From Planctomycetota bacterium (GTDB taxonomy: Bacteria; Planctomycetota; Phycisphaerae; WQYP01), in NCBI GenBank assembly GCA_021838985.1, contig JAKCCC010000008.1, positions 1-15,910 on the forward strand: DNA of 15,910 nucleotides, read 5' to 3'. A program made the translations under genes and the position numbers. Below are positions 2,159-13,493 of the stretch, in pieces; position 1 is the first letter of the stretch, and the number at the start of each line of letters is the position of its first letter. The notes beneath the pieces are model-generated. The model did not search any database, had not been told where the DNA came from, and saw only the letters and a program-made list of their open reading frames with translations.

Positions 2159-2172
2159 CCGCGACCCGTGAC

Positions 2173-2305
2173 GGAAGTTGGAAGTCGGCAGTTAGAGGTT
2201 AGGAGTTAGGAGTTAGCAGTTAGAAGCTGGGAGCTCGAAGTTAGAACTCAGAAGTCCGCCCCCATCTATTCCAACTTCCAACTTCTGACTTCTTGCTCCT
2301 AACTT
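2173..2305. repeat. Two opposed arrays of phased 7-bp repeats (family H7)
   Basis: From 2173 to 2256 there are twelve contiguous heptamers in exact 7-bp phase, with a consensus close to RGRAGTT (for example AGGAGTT twice at 2201-2214). From 2271 to 2305 there are five heptamers of the reverse complement type (CCAACTT, CCAACTT, CTGACTT, CTTGCTC, CTAACTT), perhaps preceded by a degenerate one at 2264. The two arrays face each other across a short GC-rich spacer and could pair into a hairpin. They fill the gap between the exporter and the first acyltransferase. Confidence 0.85.
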
Positions 2306-2325
2306 CTCCGCGGTGTCCAGTGGTC

Positions 2326-2360
2326 AGAAACCAGAAACCAAAAACCAAAAACCAGAAACC
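2326..2360. repeat. Array of five 7-bp repeats, RAAAACC type (family H7)
   Basis: Five perfectly phased heptamers: AGAAACC twice, AAAAACC twice, AGAAACC once. If the downstream acyltransferase started upstream of here, the array would be translated as a QKPKTKNQKP-like run, which argues for a start at GTG 2371 instead. Confidence 0.85.
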
Positions 2361-2370
2361 CGCCAACGGC

Positions 2371-2913
2371 GTGTGGGATTCCGGTCCGCTGCCCACAGGG
2401 GTGCGGGCGGGGTCCAATACCCGCATCATCGGCAGCCAGGCGTTCCGGCGTTTTCGCGCCCATGGCGGGGCGGCTCTGCAAATCGGGGCCAACTGCACCT
2501 TGGACGGAGTGCAGTTCTCTGTCGGCCCGGCGGGCCGGGTAGGCATCGGCGACTACTGCTACTTCACCAGCGCCATCCTGATGTGTGAACAGGAAATGCG
2601 CATCGGCAACTATGTGCTGATCGGCTGGAATGCGGTCATTGCCGACAGCGATTTCCACCCGCTGGAACCAGCGCAGCGCATCGCCGACGCCATCGCCTGC
2701 GCCCCCGGCGCGGCGGAAAAAACGCGCCCCCCGGTATTGTGCCGGCCGGTGGTGATTGAAGATGACGTCTGGATCGGGCCGAACGTGGTCATCCTGAAAG
2801 GCGTACATGTCGGGCGCGGCGCCTGGATCAGCCCTGGCAGCGTGGTGACCCGTGATGTACCGGCCGGGGCAGCCGTCGCCGGCAATCCCGCCCGGCTGGT
2901 GGAGCCGCCATGA
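2371..2913 (+). CDS. Acyltransferase, left-handed beta-helix (hexapeptide repeat) family, catalytic copy
   Basis: About 180 residues from GTG 2371. The frame stays open to TTG 2293, with another GTG at 2320, but that extension is made of 7-bp repeats and no start has a clear ribosome binding site. The similarity to the next gene begins at the Trp just after GTG 2371 (WDSGPLP versus WHPGTIP). Hexapeptide turns such as VGIGDYCYF, MRIGNYVLIGWNAVI, VVIEDDVWIGPNVVI and VHVGRGAWIS form the helix, and it ends with the family's VTRDVPAGAAVAGNPARLV. The DSDFHP motif after the first coils carries the probable catalytic histidine of the maltose/galactoside O-acetyltransferase group. Such enzymes move acetyl or another acyl group from CoA to a sugar and act as cytoplasmic trimers. 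The neighbours suggest a glycan substrate. Confidence 0.85.
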   Translation: MWDSGPLPTGVRAGSNTRIIGSQAFRRFRAHGGAALQIGANCTLDGVQFSVGPAGRVGIGDYCYFTSAILMCEQEMRIGNYVLIGWNAVIADSDFHPLEPAQRIADAIACAPGAAEKTRPPVLCRPVVIEDDVWIGPNVVILKGVHVGRGAWISPGSVVTRDVPAGAAVAGNPARLVEPP

Positions 2914-3530
2914 CCGCCCGCACTCTTCCTTGGGACTGGCATCCAGGGACGATTCCCGACAATGTCAGCCTGGCTGACGGCGCCTATCTGGAAACGACGT
3001 ACAGTTTTCATCGGTTTCGCAGCCGGCGGCGGGATGCCCTTATTTTGGGCGCGCACAGCGCTGCCTATATGGGTTGCATGTTTGATCTTGGTCCCCGGGC
3101 GACTTTTCACGTGGGGCGCTACAGCCTGCTTAATGGCTTGTGGCTGATCTGCGATCAAAGCGTGACCGTCGGCGATTATTGCCTGATCGCCTGGAATGTC
3201 GTGATCATGGACAATTACCGCGCCAGCCGCGTTGCTCAGCGGCGGCGCCGGATGCTGCGGCACTTTGCGCTGCGGCGCGATTCGGATATACTCCAAGCCG
3301 TAAGACCCCGTCCCGTGCACCTGGGCCGGAACGTCTGGGTGGGTTTCGACAGCTGCATTTTGCCCGGGGTACATATTGGCGATGGCGCGGTGATCGGCGC
3401 CCGGTCAGTGGTGGATCAGGATGTGCCGCCGTATGTGGTCTGGGCCGGCAATCCGGCCCGGCTGATTCGCCGTCTGACCGTCCCGGGAGATGGAAGTTGT
3501 CCGAACCCAGCTCAACCCAACCGCGCGTGA
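2910..3530 (+). CDS. Acyltransferase paralogue, left-handed beta-helix family, lacking the usual histidine
   Basis: 206 residues, starting at an ATG that overlaps the previous stop (ATGA), so translation of the two is probably coupled. It aligns with the preceding protein along its length: GDYCLIAWNVVIMD matches GNYVLIGWNAVIAD, VHLGRNVWVGFDSCIL matches VVIEDDVWIGPNVVIL, and both end WAGNPARL or VAGNPARL. The segment that carries DSDFHP in the first copy reads DNYRASR here, so the expected catalytic histidine is absent and a basic insert (AQRRRRMLRHF) follows. It could be a non-catalytic partner in a mixed trimer, an enzyme using a different residue, or a copy with altered specificity. The last codons overlap the start region of the glycosyltransferase. 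Confidence 0.85.
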   Translation: MTARTLPWDWHPGTIPDNVSLADGAYLETTYSFHRFRSRRRDALILGAHSAAYMGCMFDLGPRATFHVGRYSLLNGLWLICDQSVTVGDYCLIAWNVVIMDNYRASRVAQRRRRMLRHFALRRDSDILQAVRPRPVHLGRNVWVGFDSCILPGVHIGDGAVIGARSVVDQDVPPYVVWAGNPARLIRRLTVPGDGSCPNPAQPNRA

Positions 3531-4672
3531 TCGTGTTCGGCCTTCTGTTCTGGTTTCCACTGGCCGGAGTGACCTGGCAATTCCTGCATTTTCTGCTGGG
3601 ACTCCGCCGGCTTGGTTACGACCCGTATTATGTCGAAGACTCCGCCCGCTGGGTCTATGATCCGAACCGACGTGATTTGACGCCAGATGCCAACGCCAAT
3701 ATCCGCGCGGTGGCGCCCGTTCTGGAGGCCTACGGGTTGGGCGAGCGTTGGGCGTACCGCGGCTGCTATGAAGGCGGGCAATGTTACGGCTTAACCGAGC
3801 CGCAACTGGCCGAACTTTATCGCAACTGCGACGTGCTGTTTAATGTTACCGGGGCCCAGGAATTGCGGAATGAGCATCGACAATGCCCGGTGCGGGTATA
3901 TCTGGAAACCGATCCAGTGGTTTCGCAGATTCAGGTGGCCCAGGGCGAGGCGAAGACCATCGCCGCGCTTGATGCGCACACGCATCATTTCACATATGGG
4001 GAAAATTTAGGCGCCCCGGACTGCCGGCTGCCGGTGGGCCGCTATCACTGGCGCCCGACGCGCCAACCGGTGTTGCTGGATTGGTGGGATAATGGCCAGG
4101 CGCTCGGCGGGGAAGCTTACAACACCATCGCGACGTGGAAAAATATCGGACGCGATATTATCTATCGGGGAGAAACTTATTACTGGTCCAAAGACCGGGA
4201 GTTTTTGAAATTTATTGAGCTGCCGCAACGTGTCCGCAGCCCGCTGGAGCTGGCGGTGGGTGTGGACGCGCCCACCCGGCGGCTCCTGGAATCCCAGGGC
4301 TGGCGGTTGGCCGACCCGGTTCATATTTCACGTGATATGGATCGCTATCGGCAATACATCCAGCAGGCCCGCGGAGAATTCACCGTGGCCAAAGATCAAA
4401 ATATCCGCCTGCGCAGCGGTTGGTTTTCCGACCGCAGCGCCTGTTACCTGGCGGCCGGTCGGCCGGTGATTACCCAGGCCACGGGTTTTCACCATCAGCT
4501 GCCGACGGGGCGCGGCCTGTTCGGATTTGAAACGCTGGGAGATATTATCACGGCAATGGAGGCCATCGAAAGCGATTACGCCGGCCATTGTCGTGCCGCG
4601 CGCGAAATTGCCGCCGAATATTTCGCGGCGGAAAAAGTGCTGAGCCGGGTGCTAGCCGAAATCGGATGTTAA
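3497..4672 (+). CDS. Glycosyltransferase (GT-B-like, group 1 type C-terminal domain)
   Basis: About 391 residues from TTG 3497, which has GGGAG at 3484-3488 at suitable spacing. GTG 3527 is the alternative; it overlaps the previous stop as GTGA and would give 381 residues beginning MIVFG. The N-terminal part has a nucleotide-fold-like opening (VIVFGLLFWFPLAGVTWQ) and a motif LRRLGYDPYYVEDS. The C-terminal part has the donor-binding pattern of GT-B enzymes: LRSGWFSDRSACYLAAGRPVI, then TGRGLFGFETLGDIITAMEAI and a terminal helix. It probably adds a sugar from a nucleotide-sugar donor to the glycan modified by the adjacent acyltransferases. Donor and acceptor cannot be told from the sequence. The frame is open far upstream of 3497, but that part overlaps the acyltransferase and is not real. 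Confidence 0.82.
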   Translation: MSEPSSTQPRVIVFGLLFWFPLAGVTWQFLHFLLGLRRLGYDPYYVEDSARWVYDPNRRDLTPDANANIRAVAPVLEAYGLGERWAYRGCYEGGQCYGLTEPQLAELYRNCDVLFNVTGAQELRNEHRQCPVRVYLETDPVVSQIQVAQGEAKTIAALDAHTHHFTYGENLGAPDCRLPVGRYHWRPTRQPVLLDWWDNGQALGGEAYNTIATWKNIGRDIIYRGETYYWSKDREFLKFIELPQRVRSPLELAVGVDAPTRRLLESQGWRLADPVHISRDMDRYRQYIQQARGEFTVAKDQNIRLRSGWFSDRSACYLAAGRPVITQATGFHHQLPTGRGLFGFETLGDIITAMEAIESDYAGHCRAAREIAAEYFAAEKVLSRVLAEIGC

Positions 4673-4809
4673 AAGCCGCCCGGTCCACTCCGCCGCCCGG
4701 CGCCGGGAAGCCGAAGGTGGCGCCACGGCGCGGCCTGCGGGCTACGAAAAGGACTGGTCCGATGGTGCATCTCATGGGCGCGAAACTCTTTCGCTGGAAA
4801 CGGCGCTAG
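4666..4809 (+). CDS. Possible small basic protein, 47 residues
   Basis: An ATG at 4666 overlaps the last 7 bp of the glycosyltransferase, and the frame runs to TAG 4807-4809, four bases before the first possible start of the deacetylase, so it fills the gap exactly. The product is strongly basic (KAARSTPPPGAGKPKVAPRR, ending GAKLFRWKRR). It resembles no family I know, has no clear ribosome binding site, and includes a GTGGCGCCAC palindrome. It may be a real small gene in the operon or just GC-rich spacer; I favour spacer slightly. Confidence 0.2.
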   Translation: MLKAARSTPPPGAGKPKVAPRRGLRATKRTGPMVHLMGAKLFRWKRR

Positions 4810-4818
4810 GAATTGTCC

Positions 4819-5640
4819 GTGGCTTCCAGACAAAGTTTAGCCCAAGGTCCTTGCGTGCGGTCTGGCGATCGGGAGATTCCGACGGCGGTCCACCGGCTGC
4901 CCCGCGTGATCGTCAATGCGGATGACTTTGGTAAAAGCGCCGGCATTAATCGCGGCATCATCCAGGCCCACGAGCAGGGCCTCGTTACGAGCGCCAGCCT
5001 GATGGTCTGGAAGGCGGCGGCCGAGACGGCGGCCCGGCTGGCCTTGGAGCATCCCCGGCTGGGGGTGGGCTTGCATCTGGATTTCGGTTCATGGACTTTG
5101 CGCGATGGGCAATGGGTTCCGGTGGATACGGTCGTGGAGCTTGGCGATGCCGCCGTCGTGCGCCGGGAATTACAGCGCCAGCTGGATCGTTTCACGGATC
5201 TGCTGCGTCGGCCGCCCAGCCACCTGGATTCGCATCAACATCGACATTTAGAAGAGCCGCTGCGCTCCCTCGCGGGCGCCATGGCGGCGGATTTACAAAT
5301 TCCCCTGCGGCAGGTGTCGGGGCCGGTGCACTACTGCGGCCTGTTCTTCGGGATGGATGAACATGGCCGCGCGTTTCCGGCTAACATTACCCCCGCCGCT
5401 CTGGTGCGGTTGCTTGAAAATCCGCCGGCGGACCTTACCGAGATCGCCTGCCACCCGGCGGCGGCGATTGATTTCGTGTCGCTCTACGCGGAACAACGCC
5501 TGCAGGAATTGCAGACGCTCTGTGATCCCCAGGTACGCGCCGCGGCGGCACGGGTGCATCTGTGTTCGTTTGCCGACCTGCCGGCCGGCGCCCTGCCCGC
5601 GCCCGCTTCCCCAAGCACCGCGTTTCAACGCGGTGAATGA
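4819..5640 (+). CDS. YdjC/ChbG-family carbohydrate deacetylase
   Basis: A polysaccharide-deacetylase-like (beta/alpha barrel) metal enzyme that removes acetyl groups from N-acetylated sugars; relatives act on chitooligosaccharides (ChbG) or in hopanoid side-chain synthesis (HpnK). Counting from TTG 4813 (275 residues), metal and catalytic motifs are NADDFG (35-40), GLHLD with His88, SHQHRH with His141 and His143, and CHP with His214, so the active site looks complete. GTG 4819 is preferred because AGGA lies 7 nt before it; GTG 4906, just before IVNADDFG, is another option because ChbG proteins often begin there. It follows the glycan genes on the same strand and may trim a sugar for them. The last ten codons and the stop lie within or beside a CACCGCG hairpin repeat, so the extreme C-terminus looks repeat-derived. 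Confidence 0.88.
   Translation: MASRQSLAQGPCVRSGDREIPTAVHRLPRVIVNADDFGKSAGINRGIIQAHEQGLVTSASLMVWKAAAETAARLALEHPRLGVGLHLDFGSWTLRDGQWVPVDTVVELGDAAVVRRELQRQLDRFTDLLRRPPSHLDSHQHRHLEEPLRSLAGAMAADLQIPLRQVSGPVHYCGLFFGMDEHGRAFPANITPAALVRLLENPPADLTEIACHPAAAIDFVSLYAEQRLQELQTLCDPQVRAAAARVHLCSFADLPAGALPAPASPSTAFQRGE
5613..5640. repeat. CACCGCG hairpin repeat (family P3), overlapping a gene end
   Basis: CACCGCG (5616-5622), loop TTTCAA, CGCGGTG (5629-5635): a perfect 7-bp stem, in the opposite orientation to the copies at 5894 and 5985 (its complement reads TTCACCGCGTTGAAACGCGG). It covers the last codons of the deacetylase. A decayed copy lies at 5701-5721 (CACCGCG...CGCAGCA). Confidence 0.7.
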
Positions 5641-5787
5641 ACCTGGCGAGATTGCGGTGATGGAAGGTCTGTTCGGTGTCGCTGGGCGCCCGTATAAAAG
5701 CACCGCGATTTAACGCAGCACTTGAACTCGGGCGCTGCGCGGTACTCCAAGTGGCGCCGCAGCGCACCGCAAGCACCGAGGCTGCGG

Positions 5788-5801
5788 GTCGCCGTAGCGA
5801 C
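5788..5801. repeat. GTCGC palindrome (family P2)
   Basis: GTCGC, CGTA, GCGAC, followed by TCG. With its flanks it closely matches the reverse complement of 13491-13510 (GGTCGCTGTAGCGACTCG there, GGTCGCCGTAGCGACTCG here). Confidence 0.65.
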
Positions 5802-5890
5802 TCGTCCGCGGCGACCTGGCGAACGGCCGTGGCCGGAACGCACGGTACCCTCGCGGCCCGGCAGCGCGAGGAAAATACAGCGTCCCTCCC

Positions 5891-5971
5891 GTTCACCGTG
5901 CTGAAGCACGGTGCTTGCTATTCTGTTCGCCTTCAGCACCCTTAAAAGCTGGAACCTAAAACCTAAAACCC
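5891..5971. repeat. Composite repeat unit 1: P3 hairpin plus 7-bp array
   Basis: A perfect 8-bp stem CACCGTGC/GCACGGTG with TGAA loop (5894-5913), a 37-bp spacer (5914-5950), and four H7 heptamers (5944-5971: AAAAGCT, GGAACCT, AAAACCT, AAAACCC). The same order of parts follows directly in unit 2. Confidence 0.75.
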
Positions 5972-5981
5972 ACTTGCTTCC

Positions 5982-6089
5982 GTTCACCGTGCTGAAGGTC
6001 GCCCTAGCGACTCTTCGACACGGTGCTTGCAATTCCGTTAACTTTTAGCATCCTTGAAATCTAAAACCTGGAATCTCAAACCTAACCTC
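5982..6089. repeat. Composite repeat unit 2, with a P2 palindrome inside the hairpin loop
   Basis: Same arrangement as unit 1. The left arm CACCGTGC and TGAA (5985-5996) match unit 1 exactly. Then 21 extra bases (5998-6018), including the palindrome GTCGC-CCTA-GCGAC, separate it from the right arm CACGGTG (6019-6025). The 37-bp spacer (6026-6062) matches unit 1 at about 28 of 37 positions, and five H7 heptamers run from 6055 to 6089. Confidence 0.75.
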
Positions 6090-6106
6090 ACCTTTATCGG
6101 TTCCGC

Positions 6107-6355
6107 GGGTGTGGCCAGATTTTGTGGGCGGGGCACCCGGGGCGGCGCTGCACTCTGCCCCGGTCCGCGCAGGGGCGGAGTAGTTTACTCGCTCCCGGCG
6201 ACCTTCGGCGGACTTGTGCTAAGCCGCAAGTCGCCGCCGAGAGACCGTTAGGCGACTCGACAAACCCTGCCCGCCCGCTGGCGGGGTGAGCGGCTTGGCA
6301 GCGGAGGCCGTGGTTGGCCGCCGCCCCGGCTTTGCCACAAATTATCACCACACCC
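6107..6355. repeat. 249-bp element with 21-bp inverted ends (family P5)
   Basis: The left end reads GGGTGTGGCCAGATTTTGTG (6107 on) and the right end CCACAAATTATCACCACACC (6335 on). The two 21-bp ends match as inverted repeats at about 17 of 21 positions. A second, shorter element with the same ends lies at 8004-8092. The interior is GC-rich and contains P2-like palindromes. It encodes nothing recognisable, so it is MITE-like in form. Confidence 0.6.
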
Positions 6356-6397
6356 GGTTCTGCTGCCCGTCGGCAGCGCCGGTGGCCATTTTCACGG

Positions 6398-6418
6398 TGG
6401 AAATCTAAAATTGAAATG
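6398..6418. repeat. Short 7-bp repeat array (family H7)
   Basis: Three phased heptamers, TGGAAAT, CTAAAAT and TGAAATG, just before the dehydrogenase leader. They are degenerate compared with the other arrays. Confidence 0.4.
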
Positions 6419-6431
6419 TGGCGAGATAGAC

Positions 6432-6436
6432 GGAGG
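6432..6436 (+). promoter_or_regulatory. Shine-Dalgarno site deciding the dehydrogenase start
   Basis: GGAGG lies 9 nt before GTG 6446. This favours that start over ATG 6416 or the longer open frame from 6314, whose first codons lie in the P5 element. Confidence 0.65.
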
Positions 6437-6445
6437 CTTGGCAAC

Positions 6446-7372
6446 GTGATCCCCACGGTAGTGTTAACCGAAGATTTAGCGGAAGAACCACTGGCCTGGC
6501 TGCGCCAGCGCGCCCAGGTGGTGGAATGTCCCTGGAAAAACGCCGGGGAACTGATCCGGAAACTTTCCTCCGCCGACGGCTTGATCGTGCGCACCTATAC
6601 CCGGGTGACCGCGGAGTTGCTCGCCGCGGCGCCGCGTCTGAAAGTTGTCGGCCGGGCCGGCGTGGGACTGGATAACATTGATCTAGCGGCGTGTGAAAAG
6701 CGGGGCATCCGCGTGGTCTCCACGCCCAACGCCAATACCCATGCCGTCTGCGAATATGTATTTAATCTGATCTTCCACCTGGTGCGGCCGGTGGTGACGA
6801 TGCCGGCGGCGTGGCCGGCGGAGGAATTTTATCGTTGCCGCAAGATCACCCGCGGCTTGGAACTTTACGGCCGCACGCTGGGCGTTCTGGGCATGGGGCG
6901 CATCGGGCGGGCGGTGGGGCGCGTGGGGAACGCCTTCGGGATGGCGGTCATCTATAATGATCTGCTTGATGTGGCAGCCCAGGTTGATTTTCCCGGCCGC
7001 AGTGTAAGCAAGGCTCAGCTGTACCGCCAGGCCGATATTCTGACCGTACACGTGGACCATCAACCTGGCAACCGGCATCTGATCAATCGGGAAGTTTTGG
7101 CCCGGCTGCGCCCCACCGCCATTCTGATCAATACGGCCCGCGGAGAAGTGGTGGATGCAGCGGCTTTGGCGGAGGCTTTGCGCCGCGGCCAGCTGGCTGG
7201 CGCCGCGCTCGACGTGCATGATCCCGAACCACCTGGGCCGGATTACCCGTTATGGGGTTTGCCGAAGATTCTGCTGGCGCCGCACTTGGCCGCGCGCACC
7301 GACGGCGCCCTGGAAGCGATGAGTTGGGTCGTGCGCGACGTGGTGGACGCGCTGCAAGCAGGTGGGCGGTGA
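6446..7372 (+). CDS. D-isomer-specific 2-hydroxyacid dehydrogenase (phosphoglycerate dehydrogenase-like)
   Basis: 308 residues from GTG 6446. NAD(P)-dependent enzymes of this family interconvert a 2-keto acid and a D-2-hydroxy acid in the cytoplasm. The N-terminal substrate domain has VVGRAGVGLDNIDL (67-80). The Rossmann motif is GMGRIG (149-154), with Asp172 at the end of the second strand (VIYNDL), which favours NAD. The catalytic set is complete: Arg232 in NTARGEVVD, Glu261 in DPEPP and His280 in APHLAART. It has no C-terminal ACT or regulatory domain, so it is not a full-length SerA; it could be a short phosphoglycerate, hydroxypyruvate or glyoxylate reductase, or act on a sugar-derived acid. 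The upstream repeats separate it from the deacetylase. It ends 8 bp from the convergent toxin remnant, with no terminator visible between. Confidence 0.9.
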   Translation: MIPTVVLTEDLAEEPLAWLRQRAQVVECPWKNAGELIRKLSSADGLIVRTYTRVTAELLAAAPRLKVVGRAGVGLDNIDLAACEKRGIRVVSTPNANTHAVCEYVFNLIFHLVRPVVTMPAAWPAEEFYRCRKITRGLELYGRTLGVLGMGRIGRAVGRVGNAFGMAVIYNDLLDVAAQVDFPGRSVSKAQLYRQADILTVHVDHQPGNRHLINREVLARLRPTAILINTARGEVVDAAALAEALRRGQLAGAALDVHDPEPPGPDYPLWGLPKILLAPHLAARTDGALEAMSWVVRDVVDALQAGGR

Positions 7373-7380
7373 CGCAGAGG

Positions 7381-7631
7381 TCAGATGCCGCGGTAGATGT
7401 CGCGGCGATTACCCGCCGCCACAATCAGCACAATCAGGCGGTTATGTTCAACCGCGTGGATCACGCGGTAATCCCCCACGCGGATGCGGTATAGCACGTC
7501 TTCCCGGCCGCGCAATTTTTGGGCGCCCGGCGGGCGCGGATCCTCAGCCAAAGCTTCGACTTTCTCCGCACTGCGGCGACGTATATATTCTGGTTGCTTC
7601 TCGAGCCAGCGTTTGAGATGCGGTAGCTCAT
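7381..7631 (-). pseudogene. RelE/ParE-superfamily toxin with frameshifted 5' end
   Basis: The minus-strand frame ending at TGA 7381-7383 carries a clear RelE-type C-terminus: EKVEALAEDPRPPG, LRGREDVLYRIRVGDYRVI, and a final strand IVLIVAAGNRRDIYRGI. The natural start, ATG 7631, overlaps the antitoxin stop as ATGA and opens with the family-like MSYRI, but that frame runs into unrelated sequence and stops at 7461. The good frame resumes about five codons later (LKRWLEKQPEYIRRRSAEK) and has no usable start nearby; the closest GTG is deep inside the antitoxin. Compared with typical members, about five residues after MSYRI are missing and the frame is shifted. It is most likely an inactivated mRNA-cleaving toxin; a sequencing error is possible but would not explain the missing residues. 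Confidence 0.7.
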
Positions 7632-7930
7632 CGCAACCCGCATTTCCTTCTGACCTCTTCCCAGGGAATGGTTGGCACACGGCCCGATCGGATGTCTCTA
7701 AGCGCGGCCTCCGCCACGGCAACGTCGTGGGCATCTTCCAACGCCTGCATGTACTGGGCATCCTCCACCGGGACCACCGCGGCGAGGCGCTTGCCATGCT
7801 GTCTGACGATGGTCCGTTCTCCCCGCGCGGCGCGCCTCATGGCGTCTCGAAGAGACGCCGCCGCAGGCACGACACCCGTGCGGCGATGAGCTTTTGATCG
7901 TGGGGGTCTAGCGCCGGCCAAAATCGTCAT
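7628..7930 (-). CDS. Type II antitoxin, Phd/YefM-like
   Basis: 100 residues. The start at ATG 7930 is supported by AGGAGAGGTGG just upstream (about 7934-7944). The region SLRDAMRRAARGERTIVRQHGKRLAAVVPVEDAQYMQALED follows the Phd/YefM pattern (alpha helix, GERxxxxxHGKxxAxxVPxED). This N-terminal part would bind operator DNA as a dimer, and the C-terminal tail (about 70-100) would wrap and neutralise the toxin. Residues 1-25 are an unusual basic leader, so a later start cannot be excluded. The stop overlaps the toxin ATG. Such antitoxins usually repress their own promoter, which would lie in the 247-bp spacer that also holds a P5 element. It appears intact although the toxin is broken. Confidence 0.75.
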   Translation of the reverse strand: MTILAGARPPRSKAHRRTGVVPAAASLRDAMRRAARGERTIVRQHGKRLAAVVPVEDAQYMQALEDAHDVAVAEAALRDIRSGRVPTIPWEEVRRKCGLR

Positions 7931-8003
7931 AAACCACCTCTCCTGGGATTATCCAGTTCTCCGGGTGGTTGGTCAACCCTGTGGAGATCGTTTCGATTCC
8001 AGA

Positions 8004-8092
8004 GGGTGTGGCAATAATTTATGGCATTGGTGGCCCCTATGCCTGGCCAGACCGGTCCCGGCGCGCCGGGACCACAAATTATTACCGCACCC
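8004..8092. repeat. 89-bp element with 21-bp inverted ends (family P5)
   Basis: The ends, GGGTGTGGCAATAATTTATG (8004 on) and CCACAAATTATTACCGCACC (8072 on), match as inverted repeats at 18 of 21 positions. Inside is a perfect 20-bp palindrome made of GGTCCCGGCG and its complement (8054-8073). The ends match those of the element at 6107-6355. It lies upstream of the antitoxin and downstream of the HD-GYP gene. Confidence 0.65.
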
Positions 8093-8164
8093 ATTGGGAA
8101 TGCGTGCGGCCGATCCGCCGGTTCTATCCTCGGTGCCGTGATGTCCTCGTGGTTTGGCCGCGGC

Positions 8165-8189
8165 AAAAAAATCCGGCTTACGAGGCCAG
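8165..8189 (-). terminator. Intrinsic terminator overlapping the HD-GYP stop codon
   Basis: On the minus strand, CTGGC (8189-8185), a 7-nt loop containing the TAA stop (8180-8178), and GCCGG (8177-8173) form a 5-bp stem, followed by seven T (8171-8165). The stem is short but the T-run is clear, and the position fits the end of the kinase/regulator operon. Confidence 0.5.
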
Positions 8190-9287
8190 CTTGGGGCAAG
8201 CCACGGCCGGCGCCGCCATGCTTAGCCCTCGAATCGGCCGCAACCAGGCGGTCTGGGTCGGCGCGGACCCTTCGGGCGCCTGCTCCCATTGCAACGATTG
8301 TTGATGGAAAGCCCATATGTCTTCTTCTCTTTGCGCGAAGGCCTCAACCAAACCGGGATTGAAATGCCGGCCGGCCTGGGCGCGTATTTCGGTGCGGGCC
8401 TCTTCGCGGCTGCGGGCTGCCTTATAAACGCGTTTGGACGTGATGGCGTCGTAGGCGTCGGCCAGAGCCATCAATTGGCCGCACCAGGGAATGGCTTCTC
8501 CCGCCAGCTTTTTCGGGTAGCCGCTGCCGTCAAATTTTTCGTGATGCGTGGCAATGATATCCCGGGCCATTTCCAGGAAACGGGCATCCGGGTAGTGGTG
8601 CAGCACGTCTTCGACGGTGGCCACCCCAATCTCCACATGGCGCTTCATCGTTTCATATTCGGGCGGGGTCAGTTTACCGGGCTTAAGCAAAATCGCATCG
8701 GGAATAGCCACCTTGCCGATGTCGTGCAGCGGGCTGGTGTCGTAAAGCAACTGGATGAAATCGGCGGTGACGGCGCTGGTTCCGTCCGCCAACTCCTCGG
8801 CCAGAATACGCACATAATTGCGCACCCGTTCCAGATGCAGGCCGGTTTCCGTGTCGCGTGATTCCGCCAGCCGGGCCAGGGCAAAGATGGTCACATCGCG
8901 CATTTCCAGCGAGAGGATACGCTGGCCGGCCTTAATCCGCGCCGCCAGCTCCGCGGGATCAAACGGTTTGGTGACAAAATCATCGGCGCCCGCCGCCAAT
9001 CCCTGGGCGATATTGGCCTGCTCGTCCCGGGCGCTTAACATGATGATGTACACATAATGGCTGAAATGGCGACTGCGGATCGCCCGACACAGCTGCAAAC
9101 CGTCCATTGGCTCCATAACCCAGTCGGTGATGACCATACGGATCGGCTCCCGCTCCAGCCGGGCCAGGGCCTCATGGCCGTTGCGGGCACTGGAAACCTT
9201 ATGGCCGGCTTTTTCCAGCGTCGTCTGGAGCATCTCCAGCGCGATAGGATCGTCATCTACGATAAGAATCTGCGGTCTTGTCAGCAT
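8178..9287 (-). CDS. Response regulator with receiver and HD-GYP (cyclic-di-GMP phosphodiesterase) domains
   Basis: 369 residues from ATG 9287, which lies 10 bp after the kinase stop; ATG 9341 would overlap the kinase by 44 bp and is less likely. The receiver domain (about 5-125) has the acidic pair in ILIVDDDP, phosphoacceptor Asp55 in VITDWVM and the conserved Lys in FVTKPFDP. The HD-GYP domain (about 130-340) has ESRDTETGLHLERV, LHDIGK (188-189 HD), HHEKFDGSGYP (248-258) and LADAYDAITSKRVYK. All metal and GYP residues are present, so hydrolysis of cyclic-di-GMP is likely. It resembles RpfG in layout. It is cotranscribed with the hybrid kinase, whose Hpt domain is the obvious phosphate donor. 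A possible terminator overlaps its stop. The last 35 residues are low-complexity and unassigned. Confidence 0.93.
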   Translation of the reverse strand: MLTRPQILIVDDDPIALEMLQTTLEKAGHKVSSARNGHEALARLEREPIRMVITDWVMEPMDGLQLCRAIRSRHFSHYVYIIMLSARDEQANIAQGLAAGADDFVTKPFDPAELAARIKAGQRILSLEMRDVTIFALARLAESRDTETGLHLERVRNYVRILAEELADGTSAVTADFIQLLYDTSPLHDIGKVAIPDAILLKPGKLTPPEYETMKRHVEIGVATVEDVLHHYPDARFLEMARDIIATHHEKFDGSGYPKKLAGEAIPWCGQLMALADAYDAITSKRVYKAARSREEARTEIRAQAGRHFNPGLVEAFAQREEDIWAFHQQSLQWEQAPEGSAPTQTAWLRPIRGLSMAAPAVACPKLAS

Positions 9288-9297
9288 GCCTGCATTC

Positions 9298-12200
9298 TCA
9301 AGTGGAAACAGCGTCGCCGGCATCGGCACGGCGTTGGTCAATCCATTCCAGGCAGCGCTGCATCTGGGTGGTCAGCTCGGCCAGGGCCGCCGCGGCCCCG
9401 GCGGGCGGCAGCGAACCCCGGCAGAGCATCTCCAGCCGCTCCGCGGCCAGGTGCAGCGGTTGGGCGAAAAGATACGCCGCGGTTCCTTTGATCTGGTGCG
9501 CGGCCCGCGCCGCCGCTTCCCAATCGCCCGCGGCGATACGGTCGGTCAAATGAGCCAGTTCTTGTCGGCCTTGTGGAAGGAATTTTTGCAGCAGTCGCTC
9601 GACCAACTGGCGATCCTGTCCGCAATAGGATAACAAGCGGCCTAAATCAATGGGTTCTTCCGACCCGGTCCGATTATCAGCTTGCGCAACCAGAAGGGCG
9701 GGCGCTGGCGATGGGGCGACGGGTTCCGCCAGCGCCGCCGGAGCTGCGGTGAGCTGCTCGGCTTGTCCCAACCCGCTCGGAAGTGGCGCGGCGCTGGCCG
9801 AAGCGGGCGCGACGGATGTCCCGGCCGGCCGAGCGCCGGCTGCGGCGGCCGTGACCAGTGTCGCCGCCGGTCCCACGGTTGCGCCGTCGTCCGCGGGGGC
9901 GGGCGACGCACGGGGTGCGATGAGCCTTTCGATTTCCTTCAGCAAAGCCGCCCGATCCAACGGTTTGATCAGGTAACCGTCCGCTCCAAGCTCATGGCAA
10001 CGGCGCTGATCCTCCGGATTGGCGTTGGCCGTCAGCATGATGATGGGAAGTTTGCCGCGCCCCCCGGCGGTGAAACACTTTCCCGCGGCTTCCCGCCGGC
10101 GAATTTCCCGGACCGTTTCGCAACCGCTCAACACCGGCATGAAATTATCCATAAGCACCAGGTCGAAAGGCTCTTTTTCCAGCGCTTGCAAACACACCTG
10201 GCCGTTGTTGACCACCTGACAGGACAGCTGCAGCCCGTGGAGCACCTCCCGCGCCACGAATTGATTGATCTCGTTGTCTTCGGCCACCAGAATCTTCAGT
10301 CCCTTCAGCTCGGGCCGGATGCGCAGCGCCGGTCGCGGAGCGGCCTCCGTTCGGCTGGCATCCCGGTGGGCGGAGCCGTCGCCGAGAATCTGCATAAGCG
10401 CGTCAAAAAGCTGGGACTGCCGGATGGGCTTATTCAACACGCTGACAATGTCATGGGCGCGCAGCAACTGGGGCGGTAATTCGGCGCCGGCCCGCGTAAG
10501 CAGCACGGCGGCGGGCTTTTTAACGTCCGTCTGCTCGCGAACACGGCGAAGCAGTTCCAAGGTATCCACCGTGCTGGACTGGTGATCGGCGAACAGAATG
10601 TCCGCCGGAGCGCCCTCCTGCCGCATCTGCCGGAGGTTTTGCAGAGCGGTTTCGATGGTATCGGCCTGGCGAACCGTAAGCCGCCAGTAGGTCAGCTGCT
10701 CGGCCAGCGCCTCCCGCACGGTGGCGCTGGGGATCACCAGAAGCACATGCAGGGCGCGTAGCGCCTCCGGCAGCGCCTCGGCATCCAGCCAGATGTTAGG
10801 CTGCCGTTGCAGCTTTACGCTAAACCAAAAACAACTGCCGCGGCCCGGCTGGCTTTCGTAGTTGATAACGCCGCCCATCATTTCCACTAATTGCTTGCAG
10901 ATCGCCAGACCCAAACCGGTCCCGCCATGGAACTTGGCGCCCCCGCCGCGCACCTGGGTAAAGGCGGTAAACAACTTGCGGCCATGCTCCGGTGGAATAC
11001 CGATACCTGTGTCGTGCACTTCAAATCGCACCACCATATCGTGTTCATGCACCAGCGCCGGCGTGACTTTCACCGCGATCTCACCGGCATCCGTGAATTT
11101 GATGGCGTTATTGATCAGGTTGATCAATACCTGCCGCAGGCGGGCCGGATCCCCGCGCACCAGCGAGGGTAAATCTGGTGCGATCCGGCAAGTCACATCC
11201 AGCCCTTTGGCGGTGGCGATGGGGGTAAGCATGAAAACGGTGTTTTCGGTCGCCACGCGCAGATCGAAATCCTGGATGTCCAGTTCCAGCCGCCCGGCTT
11301 CAATCTTGGAAAAGTCGAGAATGTCGTTGATCACGCTCAACAGCGCGTCCGCGGAGGAACGGGCAATGTGGGTGTAGTTGGTCTGCTGCCGGGTCAGCGG
11401 CGTTTCGCCGAGCAAGTCCAGCATGGCGGTGACGCCGTGCAAAGGCGTGCGGATTTCGTGACTCATGTTGGCCAGAAATTGGCCTTTGGCCCGTGTGGCT
11501 TCCTCCGCCGTGGCGCGGGCTTGAATCAAATCCCGCTGCGCGATCTGCAATTTCTCAATGGTTTCATGGCGGGCCTGGACGGTTTTATCGATCATGATCG
11601 CCGCCCCCCAGACCATGCCGCCGAGCATCACCACCGTTACGATGGCCACCAATCCCGCCGCCACGCCCGCACCGATCAGATGCATGCGGAACGCCACGAT
11701 GGCCGGCCCGATCAACGCCGGTGGAAGCAGCAGCACCGCCGGCAGAAGGCGGCGCATGATCATGCCGCCGGGCAGCGGGCTGCGCAGGTTTCTCGACAGA
11801 CCGTAGTTGGGCTCCAGGCTCAGCAACCCCGCGGTGAGCAGCAGAAATCCCAACGCGGCACTGAAAGGCATGGGCATGAATCGGCCGTGATGGCCCGACC
11901 AGTGCCCGCCGAATAAATAGTTTGTCAGTCCGAATAAATGGCTGGTCAGTCCGAAAATCACCACCAGCAACACCGTCAGGCCGAAAGCCTGCACCCAGAA
12001 CTGTCGCCGCCGGCGCCGGAGCGACAAGCCAGCCAGCAGGCCCAGTCCGGCCACGATAAAGGCCGTGGCCGTTTCCGGCGCCATGCGATTGGGGGCGAAA
12101 GGCACGTGGTTAAGCCGGGCGGCGAATAGCCAGCGATCAACATACAACGGGGCGCCGGTCAGGTAACGCCAAAGGCGGGCGGCGGCCAGGATGATCGTCA

Positions 12201-12489
12201 CGGCGGCGCCCCCGGCGATCCATGGAACCAACCGGCGGTTTCGCCGGGCGGGTTTTTGCAGAGCCAGCACCACGGCGCAGAGCAGAAATAACACCGCCAC
12301 CAGCGGATTCATGGGAACCGTGCCGGGAATAAAGCTGATCAGCGTATTATTGGCAACGGTCCAGCCGAGCAGCACCAAAACGCCAATAAGGGCTACGCCG
12401 AAGGCCCAAAGGCGCTCCCTGCGCCAGCGACTTTTCCCGGTTGGTTCGGAAACGGATTCCATGGCGGTATTCGGCTCAATATGTCGCAT
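9298..12489 (-). CDS. Hybrid sensor histidine kinase with multi-pass membrane domain, two receivers and Hpt
   Basis: 1063 residues from ATG 12489 (GTGAGGG just upstream; ATG 12462 is the alternative). Residues 30-300 contain about eight hydrophobic helices and no evident periplasmic domain, with three similar segments of the form M-x-P-x-x-A-x-x-F-L-L (near 60, 136 and 205). A coiled linker leads to the HisKA domain (FLANMSHEIRTPLHG, His344), then the ATPase domain (N-box LINLINNAIKF, DTGIG 493-497, GGTGLGL 522-528). Receiver 1 (about 579-700) keeps Asp635 and Lys687, but the N-terminal acidic pair is replaced (LLVIPSA), so it is probably inactive. Receiver 2 (731-856) is complete: AEDNE, Asp781 and Lys842. 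An Ala/Pro-rich linker (858-940) joins it to Hpt (AAHQIKGTAAYL, His998). The flow His344-Asp781-His998 to the downstream HD-GYP regulator is inferred. The signal is unknown. Confidence 0.92.
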   Translation of the reverse strand: MRHIEPNTAMESVSEPTGKSRWRRERLWAFGVALIGVLVLLGWTVANNTLISFIPGTVPMNPLVAVLFLLCAVVLALQKPARRNRRLVPWIAGGAAVTIILAAARLWRYLTGAPLYVDRWLFAARLNHVPFAPNRMAPETATAFIVAGLGLLAGLSLRRRRRQFWVQAFGLTVLLVVIFGLTSHLFGLTNYLFGGHWSGHHGRFMPMPFSAALGFLLLTAGLLSLEPNYGLSRNLRSPLPGGMIMRRLLPAVLLLPPALIGPAIVAFRMHLIGAGVAAGLVAIVTVVMLGGMVWGAAIMIDKTVQARHETIEKLQIAQRDLIQARATAEEATRAKGQFLANMSHEIRTPLHGVTAMLDLLGETPLTRQQTNYTHIARSSADALLSVINDILDFSKIEAGRLELDIQDFDLRVATENTVFMLTPIATAKGLDVTCRIAPDLPSLVRGDPARLRQVLINLINNAIKFTDAGEIAVKVTPALVHEHDMVVRFEVHDTGIGIPPEHGRKLFTAFTQVRGGGAKFHGGTGLGLAICKQLVEMMGGVINYESQPGRGSCFWFSVKLQRQPNIWLDAEALPEALRALHVLLVIPSATVREALAEQLTYWRLTVRQADTIETALQNLRQMRQEGAPADILFADHQSSTVDTLELLRRVREQTDVKKPAAVLLTRAGAELPPQLLRAHDIVSVLNKPIRQSQLFDALMQILGDGSAHRDASRTEAAPRPALRIRPELKGLKILVAEDNEINQFVAREVLHGLQLSCQVVNNGQVCLQALEKEPFDLVLMDNFMPVLSGCETVREIRRREAAGKCFTAGGRGKLPIIMLTANANPEDQRRCHELGADGYLIKPLDRAALLKEIERLIAPRASPAPADDGATVGPAATLVTAAAAGARPAGTSVAPASASAAPLPSGLGQAEQLTAAPAALAEPVAPSPAPALLVAQADNRTGSEEPIDLGRLLSYCGQDRQLVERLLQKFLPQGRQELAHLTDRIAAGDWEAAARAAHQIKGTAAYLFAQPLHLAAERLEMLCRGSLPPAGAAAALAELTTQMQRCLEWIDQRRADAGDAVST

Positions 12490-12807
12490 CCCTCACACCC
12501 GGCCACAGAGTGCGTGAGGATCACAGCGTAATCATGTGCCAAAATATATCGTGATCTATCGTATGGCTTTTACGGTGGCGTGGTTTCATCCCGGCATGCT
12601 GAATCCTCCGGAACCATACTCTGCCTATACCTATCTATCGGCTATTGTAGGCATGGTTATGAGGAATTTCTTGACAAAAGTGGAAAATGGTCTCGCCTGC
12701 CCGCCGGGGGTTGGTCCGCAAACAGGCGTAGCCCCAAGGTCGCGGCGGGCGACTAAACTGTAGCGCGGGGTCAGGTGCGGCTCGTGAACGGCTACGGAGA
12801 ATATGAA
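12490..12807. other. 318-bp spacer between mreD and the kinase
   Basis: Contains no credible gene. The half next to the kinase (about 12525-12690) is unusually AT-rich for this window and presumably holds the kinase promoter, but no well-spaced -35/-10 pair could be assigned. A P2-like palindrome GTCGC-GGCGG-GCGAC lies at 12739-12753 near the mreD end. Confidence 0.5.
12739..12753. repeat. GTCGC palindrome (family P2)
   Basis: GTCGC, GGCGG, GCGAC. Its loop differs from that of the other copies, so it is a more distant member or a chance palindrome. Confidence 0.4.
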
Positions 12808-13335
12808 TCAGACCCGTCGTAGCCTGGTCTCAAAGCCCAGCAGCGATCCTAGCAGGAATAACAGGCGGAACAATCCCGGCGCTACGAGGGCCGTGTACAG
12901 GGTGCTGCTGGCGATCAGCCCGGCTTGGGTGGCCAGGCCGATGCGCCCCCACGCCCCGCCCGCCATCGGAAATACCAGCCATTCCACCAGGCTCCGCGCG
13001 ATCATAAACAGCAATACTCCAAGGCAGGTCAGGACCGCCTGGCTGACCGGATTGGCGCGGAAAATATGTTTGCGGATGGGGATGATTCCCAGACCGATCA
13101 TGGCCAGCAGGATGGCCTGCAAGCCCAGTGGGCCGGAACTGGTCAGATCATAGACCAGCCCACACCAGAAGCACGCCAAGGGGGCCGAATCCGTTGCGGC
13201 GAACATGGCGTAAAAAATGGCGAGCAGGGGAAGATATTCGATATGAAAATAGCCGGCCGCGCTGAGTTGGCCCAGATGCGCTGCTTGCAGCGCTGTGGCC
13301 AGGTAAAGCAGAATAAAAAAAGGAATCCAACGCAT
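12808..13335 (-). CDS. mreD: Rod shape-determining protein MreD
   Basis: 175 residues, almost entirely membrane-embedded with about five hydrophobic segments. The diagnostic stretch is CGLVYDLTSSGPLGLQAILL, matching the MreD pattern G-x-x-x-D-x-x-x-x-x-x-G-x-x-A near the middle of the protein, and the length is usual. MreD is an inner-membrane part of the elongasome that works with MreB and MreC to guide lateral peptidoglycan synthesis. Here it stands alone: the divergent gene upstream is a BamD-like protein, and no mreB or mreC is in the window. The start at ATG 13335 has no ribosome binding site and comes 9 bp after a 7-bp repeat array. Confidence in the family is fairly high; it is short and hydrophobic, so other small membrane proteins remain a minor alternative. 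Confidence 0.8.
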   Translation of the reverse strand: MRWIPFFILLYLATALQAAHLGQLSAAGYFHIEYLPLLAIFYAMFAATDSAPLACFWCGLVYDLTSSGPLGLQAILLAMIGLGIIPIRKHIFRANPVSQAVLTCLGVLLFMIARSLVEWLVFPMAGGAWGRIGLATQAGLIASSTLYTALVAPGLFRLLFLLGSLLGFETRLRRV

Positions 13336-13344
13336 GGCAATAAC

Positions 13345-13372
13345 AAGTTTTCGGTTCCAGGTTTTCGGTTTT
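13345..13372. repeat. 7-bp repeat array upstream of mreD (family H7)
   Basis: Four phased heptamers: AAGTTTT, CGGTTCC, AGGTTTT, CGGTTTT. Read on the minus strand this is AAAACCG, AAAACCT, GGAACCG, AAAACTT, the same type as the arrays at 5944 and 6055. It ends 9 bp before the mreD ATG, so it would lie in the mreD leader. Confidence 0.7.
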
Positions 13373-13493
13373 CAGCAGCTTAACCCGGAACACTTTAGCC
13401 GGTAAGTGCCCCGTCGCAAAACCTGGCCGCAGCCGTGGTGTGCCCCCGCATCTGAGGTCCCCGGGGCGGCGGTTCACCGGTCGCCGCCGGCGA

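What the first reader, a model, noticed from the sequence alone, without database searches (positions are those of the whole stretch)
2173..13372. Dispersed arrays of exactly phased 7-bp repeats in spacers
Arrays at 2173-2256, 2271-2305, 2326-2360, 5944-5971, 6055-6089 and 13345-13372 (and weakly 6398-6418) consist of contiguous degenerate heptamers with unbroken 7-bp phase. Two related types occur: RGRAGTT and RAAAACC. All lie between genes, in either orientation. The unit drifts in sequence but the period does not, which suggests growth by slippage or selection on spacing. Cyanobacteria are known to carry heptanucleotide tandem repeats, but whether these are related is unknown.
Basis: seen in the sequence. 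Interest (0 to 1): 0.7.

Follow-up and report, generated by a model that had tools for sequence, protein, structure and literature searches.

The report
Heptamer arms of S23 mobile elements
The odd 7-letter repeats in this genome look like the mirrored ends of small mobile DNA elements that, in many bacterial phyla, carry a gene for a small four-helix protein called S23, which may explain a long-noted excess of 7-bp repeats in bacteria.

Summary
The arrays are real: 2173-2256, 2269-2305 and 2326-2360 are strong, 5946-5970 moderate, 13345-13373 weak, 6055-6089 very weak, 6398-6418 unsupported. The first two are an inverted pair folding as one hairpin. In 10 of 10 relatives examined the flanking genes overlap, so the arrays look inserted. 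[quoted passage not shown] Of 110 such loci from many phyla, 86 have 7-bp and 15 have 8-bp arms. The two arms of a locus share a word that differs between loci. Control genes and ParE lack them. Five S23-free genomes sampled have almost no 7-bp arrays. One Mesorhizobium site is empty, carries S23, or carries arms alone in different genomes. I read the window arrays as gene-less and solo arms of S23 elements. That S23 reads the arms unit by unit, fixing the period, is inference. No paper found makes this link; Coxiella's intervening sequence is a partial precedent.

The parts
2173..2256 (+). left arm, about 12 degenerate GAAGTTA-type heptamers, purine-rich on the + strand
   Evidence: 7-lag 57 of 77; TRF period 7; spacer score 57 vs shuffle maximum 9
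2257..2268 (.). short unique core between the two arms; no S23 gene
   Evidence: sequence
2269..2305 (-). right arm, about 5 heptamers, reverse complement of the left-arm type (AACTTCT)
   Evidence: pairs with the outer part of the left arm in one long stem, -51.9 kcal/mol, z -2.67, 3 of 200 shuffles as good; G001 lacks exactly one heptamer here
2325..2360 (+). solo array of AAACCAR heptamers, in frame with the acetyltransferase ORF 2293-2913
   Evidence: 26 of 28 for 2326-2360; same word type as the arms of an S23 gene of G001, C29:718-1035
2159..2370 (+). whole extra spacer between ABC transporter and acetyltransferase genes
   Evidence: absent in 10 of 10 relatives, whose two genes overlap at ATGA
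5946..5970 (+). solo array of AAAACCT heptamers
   Evidence: 12 vs shuffle maximum 11
6055..6089 (+). very weak, degenerate AAAACCT-type array, assigned by likeness only
   Evidence: 16 of 28; below the score cut-off
13345..13373 (-). short weak array, GTTTTCG on the + strand, just upstream of the mreD start
   Evidence: 13 of 21; 12 of 500 shuffles as good; unchanged in G001; like the GTGTTCG/GTTTTCA arm of the own-genome S23 gene at C505:662-964

Best explanation
The 7-bp-phased arrays are the terminal inverted arms of small mobile elements that encode the S23 / 23S-rRNA-intervening-sequence protein (PF05635, a four-helix bundle akin to the Avd protein of diversity-generating retroelements). 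In the window, 2173-2305 is a gene-less copy (two inverted arms and a tiny core), and the other arrays are solo or decayed arms. SHOWN: S23 genes across phyla are flanked, about 40 bp from the S23 domain, by inverted arrays of 7-bp (less often 8-bp) units; both arms share a word that differs from locus to locus; five S23-free genomes sampled nearly lack such arrays; one site exists empty, with S23, or with arms alone; units are duplicated and lost locally. INFERRED: the element moves as arms plus gene (or arms alone), and the period is held because S23, seen as five chains in both solved structures, contacts one unit per subunit while tolerating drift of the word. Arms are about 33 nt, near 5 x 7. 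When transcribed the arms can fold into an imperfect duplex, as in rRNA intervening sequences, which would make insertion into transcripts tolerable. The enzyme that cuts and joins the DNA is not identified.
For: 30 S23 loci fetched without regard to repeats: 7-bp arrays in 42 of 60 flanks (one flank only 1 bp long) against 1 of 56 for control genes. 80 loci from many phyla: 115 of 160 flanks. Best period of 110 loci: 7 in 86, 8 in 15, 6 in 1, 9 in 1, none in 7. Same word in both arms 43 of 92, at most one mismatch 68 of 92, against 2.2% and 9.1% between loci. Arm complementarity 23.1 own vs 10.5 between loci, 0 of 5000 permutations, 107 of 110 loci used; in the first 29 loci alone 5 of 20000. 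ParE genes 0 of 60 flanks. Five S23-free genomes 1 array in 317 kb vs 14 in 335 kb of five S23-rich ones. Both S23 genes of the own genome have such arms, of word types seen in the window. Mesorhizobium site, 62 genomes: 31 empty, 18 with S23, 2 S23 remnants, 9 gene-less inserts (4 with clear inverted arrays, 1 with a roughly inverted 7-bp array, 4 with little or no repeat), 2 other hairpins. Window site empty in 10 of 10 relatives. Solved S23 structures 2gsc and 2rld have five chains each.
Against: The window holds no S23 gene, and only one of its arrays has an inverted partner. No target-site duplication was recognised. Empty against occupied does not say whether gain or loss occurred, and homologous exchange between strains could move alleles. 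One genome without a PF05635 hit (G021, 76% complete) still has 2 GAAGTT-array matches, and 7 of 110 S23 loci have no detectable arms. The period is not fixed for ever: 7 and 8 interchange about 6 times on the protein tree. Arm length is about the same for period 7 (33 nt) and 8 (35 nt), which fits a fixed length as well as a fixed unit number. No binding data. Two further gene families show other arm grammars, so S23 cannot be the only gene with arms.
Confidence: 0.75

Rival explanations
1. Plain replication-slippage satellites: any 7-bp duplication may grow, and heptamers are favoured by the polymerase footprint; nearness to S23 is incidental.
For: Unit identity falls with lag; arm lengths vary freely among orthologues in Mesorhizobium; the footprint idea is quoted in PMC4692102 (passages read).
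Against: Arrays come as inverted pairs sharing one word per locus, surround S23 in most of 110 loci, are almost absent from five S23-free genomes sampled and flank none of 30 ParE genes. Free slippage predicts none of this.
Confidence: 0.1
2. Pre-existing inverted arrays are the target into which S23 genes insert, rather than part of the moving unit.
For: Arms without gene are common; in the Mesorhizobium set eight genomes outside the main clade have gene-less inserts at the same site, four of them clear inverted arrays.
Against: 31 of 62 genomes lack arms and gene alike at that site, and empty and occupied genomes are interleaved on the flank tree (14 changes with the 2 other hairpins counted as empty; starred branches force at least 5 for 'empty').
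Confidence: 0.15
3. The arms are regulatory hairpins (RNase III processing sites, terminators or protein-binding sites) that hosts keep around S23 and other genes, not the ends of a mobile element.
For: The rRNA intervening sequence of Coxiella is excised by RNase III in its terminal stem (PMC4990558, passages); S23 is mostly co-oriented with its neighbours (58 '++' vs 10 '--').
Against: Presence-absence variation at one site, solo and gene-less copies in unrelated spacers, and in-frame copies inside glycosyltransferase genes fit mobility better.
Confidence: 0.12

Closest known systems
23S rRNA intervening sequences (IVS) encoding S23
   Same: Encode PF05635; ends are inverted repeats forming a stem; Coxiella's IVS has two or three GACAGAT heptamers, by strain, before the S23 start (PMC4990558, passages).
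   Different: Those lie in rRNA genes; here the elements are found in operon spacers and inside protein genes, the arms are tandem arrays with a locus-specific word, and gene-less copies occur. In the passages seen, the paper treats the heptamers as a local variable repeat.
Heptanucleotide repeats of Xanthomonas and Nostoc (GGGNATC, GGGGAYT) and cyanobacterial STRR
   Same: 7-bp units, mostly intergenic; in Xanthomonas often in convergent inverted pairs (70 cases in Xcc, 75 in Xac; few in Nostoc); lengths vary between relatives (PMC4692102, passages).
   Different: That paper read them as G-quadruplex repeats and says they were generally not associated with mobile elements; XCC0516 (the Xanthomonas S23) is not named in it.
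TAACTGA direct repeats of Beggiatoaceae
   Same: Intergenic heptamer arrays spread patchily over phyla, suggested to be horizontally transmitted with no evident mechanism (PMC4679880, passages).
   Different: Mainly direct repeats before start codons; no S23 link in the passages seen.
[quoted passage not shown]
   Same: Gene-less, short, inverted ends, dispersed.
   Different: Ends are tandem arrays whose word differs per locus; no parent transposase and no target duplication found.
Rickettsia palindromic elements
   Same: Inverted elements inserted in frame in protein genes (recalled; only titles and abstract starts seen in a listing).
   Different: Here some insertions contain a gene read in another frame, and the sequence is a tandem array.

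Membership tests
S23 / IVS element | encodes a PF05635 protein | tested here: not met
   No PF05635 hit falls on the window contig C404. The window copies can only be gene-less derivatives. Both PF05635 genes found in the own genome lie elsewhere (C263, C505) and carry arms.
S23 / IVS element | terminal inverted repeats that form a stem | tested here: met
   2173-2305 folds as one stem, z -2.67. The other window arrays have no inverted partner nearby.
S23 / IVS element | location in an rRNA gene | tested here: not met
   No Rfam match at gathering score in the window.
S23 / IVS element | excision of the transcript by RNase III | not testable with these tools
   needs RNA work
S23-element arm (as defined here) | inverted 7- or 8-bp arrays, same word in both arms | tested here: met
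   2173-2256 / 2269-2305: GAAGTTA against AACTTCT
MITE | inverted ends, no gene | tested here: met
MITE | target-site duplication | tested here: inconclusive
   none recognised by eye at the window site or in the Mesorhizobium sites
MITE | ends shared with an autonomous transposon | tested here: inconclusive
   shared word types with S23 genes of the same genus, but S23 is not known to be a transposase
Heptanucleotide STRR / SSR | tandem 7-bp units in spacers | tested here: met
Diversity-generating retroelement | reverse transcriptase gene | tested here: not met
   no RVT_1 match in G000 (genome 69.5% complete) or in G018, which had the most GAAGTT matches of the 61 genomes

The most novel reading that the evidence does not exclude
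S23, GxxExxY (PDDEXK_3) and DUF559 genes are the cargo of one unrecognised superclass of bacterial mobile elements. Their ends are inverted arrays whose spacing is a property of the encoded protein: contiguous 7-mers (8-mers) for S23, CRCARAG-like units every 8-10 bp for GxxExxY, GGGAGAGGG/GGGTGAGGG for DUF559. The protein reads its arms unit by unit, so spacing is conserved while the word drifts. Some copies are 'transparent' insertions: they sit inside host genes such as dnaE and carB, and the host frame runs open through the S23 gene in its +2 frame, so that both proteins can be made. These elements would be the source of much of the long-noted excess of heptamers in bacterial genomes.
Probability: 0.4. 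Interest if true: 0.95.

Novelty: new variant of a known kind. Interest (0 to 1): 0.86.

Why it matters
Heptamer repeats have been reported piecemeal for decades in cyanobacteria, Xanthomonas, Geobacter and giant sulfur bacteria, with over-representation noted in 2007 (as quoted in PMC4692102) but no settled cause. A specific partner gene turns 'why seven?' into a question that can be tested by binding and mobility assays. It also gives a genomic home to S23, a protein with solved structures and, as far as I know, no assigned function, and warns that some short odd ORFs and protein insertions in environmental genomes are element arms read as protein.

Tried and rejected
A protein alignment query failed for lack of conserved stretches and was replaced by one consensus protein. 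Reverse transcription as the needed engine: no RVT_1 match in several S23-carrying genomes, including G018, G012, G042, G044 and G054; dropped, though draft genomes limit this. Period as a strict function of S23 clade: 7 and 8 cluster on the protein tree (6 changes vs 14 shuffled), but close relatives share descent, and Mesorhizobium holds 7 inside an 8 clade; kept only as weak support. Array 6398-6418: rejected. Rfam: nothing in the window. The 9-bp phrases near the G018 arrays first looked like a variant of the same thing; they resemble GxxExxY arms instead. Selection for an open +2 frame in S23 generally: outside host genes only 7 of 95 genes are open, so the excess (21 of 110 against 5.2 expected) comes from the 14 copies inside host ORFs. 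Rows dropped: two of 110 S23 proteins with internal stops were left out of the tree; three of 110 loci were left out of the complementarity test for short flanks or N; one of 30 ParE loci likewise. In one search runs of N were counted as matching, which inflates L180 and L171; one search excludes N and is the figure to use. For DUF559, 15 of the 16 strongest of 33 hits were examined, 14 of them in the arm test. I did not examine PF05635 hits beyond the 30 loci handed out and the 80 (which kept 80 of 431 confirmed), apart from further copies of G000, G001 and G018. Genome-level tally: GAAGTT matches in 24 of 51 genomes with PF05635 and in 1 of 10 without; only one word was searched, so this is weak.
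Full report
OBSERVATION. The arrays were tested by 7-lag matching, Tandem Repeats Finder and dinucleotide shuffles. Arrays 2173-2256, 2269-2305 and 2326-2360 are far beyond chance (spacer score 57 against a maximum of 9 in 500 shuffles). 5946-5970 is significant (12 against a maximum of 11). 13345-13373 is weak (12 of 500 shuffles as good). 6055-6089 stands only by likeness, and 6398-6418 is not supported. The first two arrays are reverse complements and fold as one long stem (-51.9 kcal/mol, z -2.67, 3 of 200 shuffles as good); the two solo arrays folded there, 2320-2366 and 13335-13380, do not fold better than shuffles. Array 2326-2360 is in frame with the acetyltransferase ORF rather than cleanly between genes.

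SAME SITE IN RELATIVES. In the same-genus genome G001 (93-96% identical) the arrays are present. The right arm lacks exactly one heptamer, and the left arm is interrupted by other repeat sequence where the assembly breaks. Of the 15 family members searched, 10 besides G001 gave a locus matching the acetyltransferase region. In 10 of these 10 the upstream ABC transporter (41-45% amino-acid identity over its C-terminal part) overlaps the acetyltransferase start codon as ATGA, leaving no room for an array. The spacer with its three arrays therefore looks like an insertion in this genus. The caveat is that synteny was judged from that moderate protein identity.

WHAT THE ARRAYS BELONG TO. In relatives, many hits came as convergent pairs. 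In G018, array-armed units lie densely around an S23 gene (PF05635) that is itself bounded by arrays. I therefore searched PF05635 in 61 genomes (51 have it) and took the 30 loci handed out, unselected for repeats. 42 of 60 flanks (one only 1 bp long) carry a 7-bp array, against 1 of 56 flanks of 28 control genes; both sides do, at the lower threshold of 9, in 21 of 30 against 0 of 28. Four of the loci without 7-bp arrays have 8-bp inverted arrays by eye (L130, L143, L145, L147). 80 more loci from named genomes of many phyla gave 115 of 160 flanks with period 7 and 23 of 160 with period 8; other periods from 5 to 12 gave 2-7. Together, with N excluded, the best period is 7 in 86, 8 in 15, 6 in 1, 9 in 1 and none in 7 of 110 loci. 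Arms are about 33 nt long (median 4.7 units for period 7), lie a median of about 40 bp from the S23 domain, and are on average purine-rich upstream and pyrimidine-rich downstream.

ONE WORD PER LOCUS. Among 92 loci with both arms, 43 have the identical word in both and 68 differ by at most one base; between loci the figures are 2.2% and 9.1%. There are 102 distinct words. Own arms are complementary (23.1) far beyond arms of different loci (10.5), 0 of 5000 permutations, for 107 of 110 loci. Identity between units falls steadily with distance (0.78 to 0.45), the mark of local duplication. So slippage is how arms lengthen, but not why they exist.

OWN GENOME. The incomplete genome G000 has two PF05635 hits. 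One gene (C263) is flanked by GAAGTTA-type arrays. The other (C505) has arms of the GTGTTCG/GTTTTCA and AAACCAA type, like 13345-13373. An S23 gene of G001 (C29) has GTTTCTG/AAACCAG arms like 2326-2360, and another (C60) has AGGTTAT/ATAACCT arms, one base from the AAACCTA of 5946-5970 (by eye). Each word type of the window thus has a close counterpart among S23 arms within the genus.

CONTROLS. ParE toxin genes in the same genomes: 0 of 60 flanks with a 7-bp array, and own-flank complementarity (9.6, 29 loci) no higher than between loci (12.1). Five genomes without a PF05635 hit: 1 seven-bp array in 317 kb at score 13 and none at 16. Five S23-rich genomes: 14 and 10 in 335 kb. G018: 29 and 18 in 289 kb. 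The stretches were chosen by contig number, not at random, so this is a sample. Against the rule, one genome without a PF05635 hit (G021, 76% complete) has 2 GAAGTT matches.

PRESENCE AND ABSENCE. At one operon spacer in 62 Mesorhizobium-group genomes, 31 have a bare 24-40 bp spacer, 18 an S23 element, 2 S23 remnants, 9 a gene-less insert, and 2 an unrelated hairpin; I assigned the states by hand from the printed sequences. Of the 9 gene-less inserts, 4 have clear inverted arrays (G070, G106, G117, G118), 1 a long 7-bp array whose halves are only roughly inverted (G111), and 4 little or no repeat. On a tree of the flanking genes, occupied against empty (other hairpins counted as empty) needs 14 changes, and starred branches force at least 5 for 'empty'. 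Gain, loss and strain-to-strain exchange are not told apart. S23 genes are mostly co-oriented with both neighbours (58 '++' vs 10 '--' of 99 with both called, by longest-ORF calls).

INSIDE GENES. In G018 and three relatives, one interdomain loop of a glycosyltransferase holds a different in-frame insert in each species, array material being plain in G018, G013 and G025. The parts on either side are 79-88% identical in two of the relatives; the third was aligned through the insert at 66%. Of 110 S23 loci, 14 lie inside an ORF on the same strand that extends at least 50 codons on both sides and stays open through the whole element in another frame; one more is open on the other strand only (L134). 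Some of the 14 may be chance in GC-rich DNA. Nine were scanned: Pfam finds host domains in all nine, Eco57I-type methylases in five, N6_N4 methylase in two, DNA polymerase III alpha and carbamoyl-phosphate synthase in one each. The domains lie on both sides of the insert in three (L145 polymerase, L188 synthase, L176 methylase). The +2 frame of S23 is stop-free in 21 of 110 genes against 5.2 expected after synonymous shuffling; 14 of the 21 are these embedded copies, and only 7 of the other 95 are open. That the host protein is made is not shown.

MECHANISM. The two solved S23 structures have five chains each. Avd kinship is supported by a PF22296 match below cut-off and by a passage of PMC10053308. 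My preferred reading is that S23 contacts one unit per subunit, so that spacing is selected and the word is free to drift. Nearly equal arm length for periods 7 and 8 is a point against a strict one-to-one rule. A genome-encoded reverse transcriptase is not required. The recombinase is unknown.

WIDER CLASS. GxxExxY (PF13366) genes have inverted arms of about three units spaced 8-10 bp (best period 9 in 10, 8 in 7, 10 in 2, 7 in 1, none in 10 of 30; own 22.4 vs 10.8, 0 of 20000 permutations). Of 15 DUF559 loci examined (of 33 hits), 9 have GGGAGAGGG- or GGGTGAGGG-type words upstream and their complements downstream; own complementarity 30.9 vs 14.5 for 14 of them. Each family has its own spacing, which supports the idea that the protein sets it.

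LITERATURE. Heptamer repeats are known from Xanthomonas, Nostoc, Beggiatoaceae and Geobacter (PMC4692102, PMC4679880, PMC2700814; passages only). The Coxiella intervening sequence has heptamers before S23 (PMC4990558, passages). CPR rRNA insertions can encode S23 (PMC11270868, passages). I found no paper joining heptamer arrays with S23 genes genome-wide; the library lacks most subscription journals, so this is not proof.

Noticed in passing
window 6107-6357; also 7999-8090 by its ends: Dispersed MITE-like elements with ends GGGTGTGG..; the first has many partial copies at 75-95% identity in G001.
   Followed up: partly
window 5615-5640, 5890-5930, 5979-6030: Several REP-like palindromes (CACCGCGTTTCAACGCGGTG and kin); a similar one stands where the G001 contigs break beside the array.
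   Followed up: no
L145, L188 and 12 more S23 loci: S23 elements inside longer ORFs (dnaE, carB, Eco57I-type methylases among them) with that frame open through the S23 gene in its +2 frame.
   Followed up: partly
L404-L433: GxxExxY (PDDEXK_3) genes, many flanked by inverted CRCARAG-like units every 8-10 bp.
   Followed up: partly
L434-L442, L454-L457, L461, L463: DUF559 genes, 9 of 15 flanked by inverted GGGAGAGGG/GGGTGAGGG-type arms.
   Followed up: partly
window 7393-7605, - strand: ParE-like toxin gene; the ORF 7628-7930 just upstream on the same strand may be its antitoxin (not tested).
   Followed up: no
window 11909-11955: Imperfect 21-bp tandem repeat inside the histidine kinase gene.
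   Followed up: no
L088:4040-4110 and 4360-4405 (G018): CACAGATTA- and CACAAAGA-like phrases of about 9-bp period beside the heptamer arrays, resembling GxxExxY arms.
   Followed up: partly
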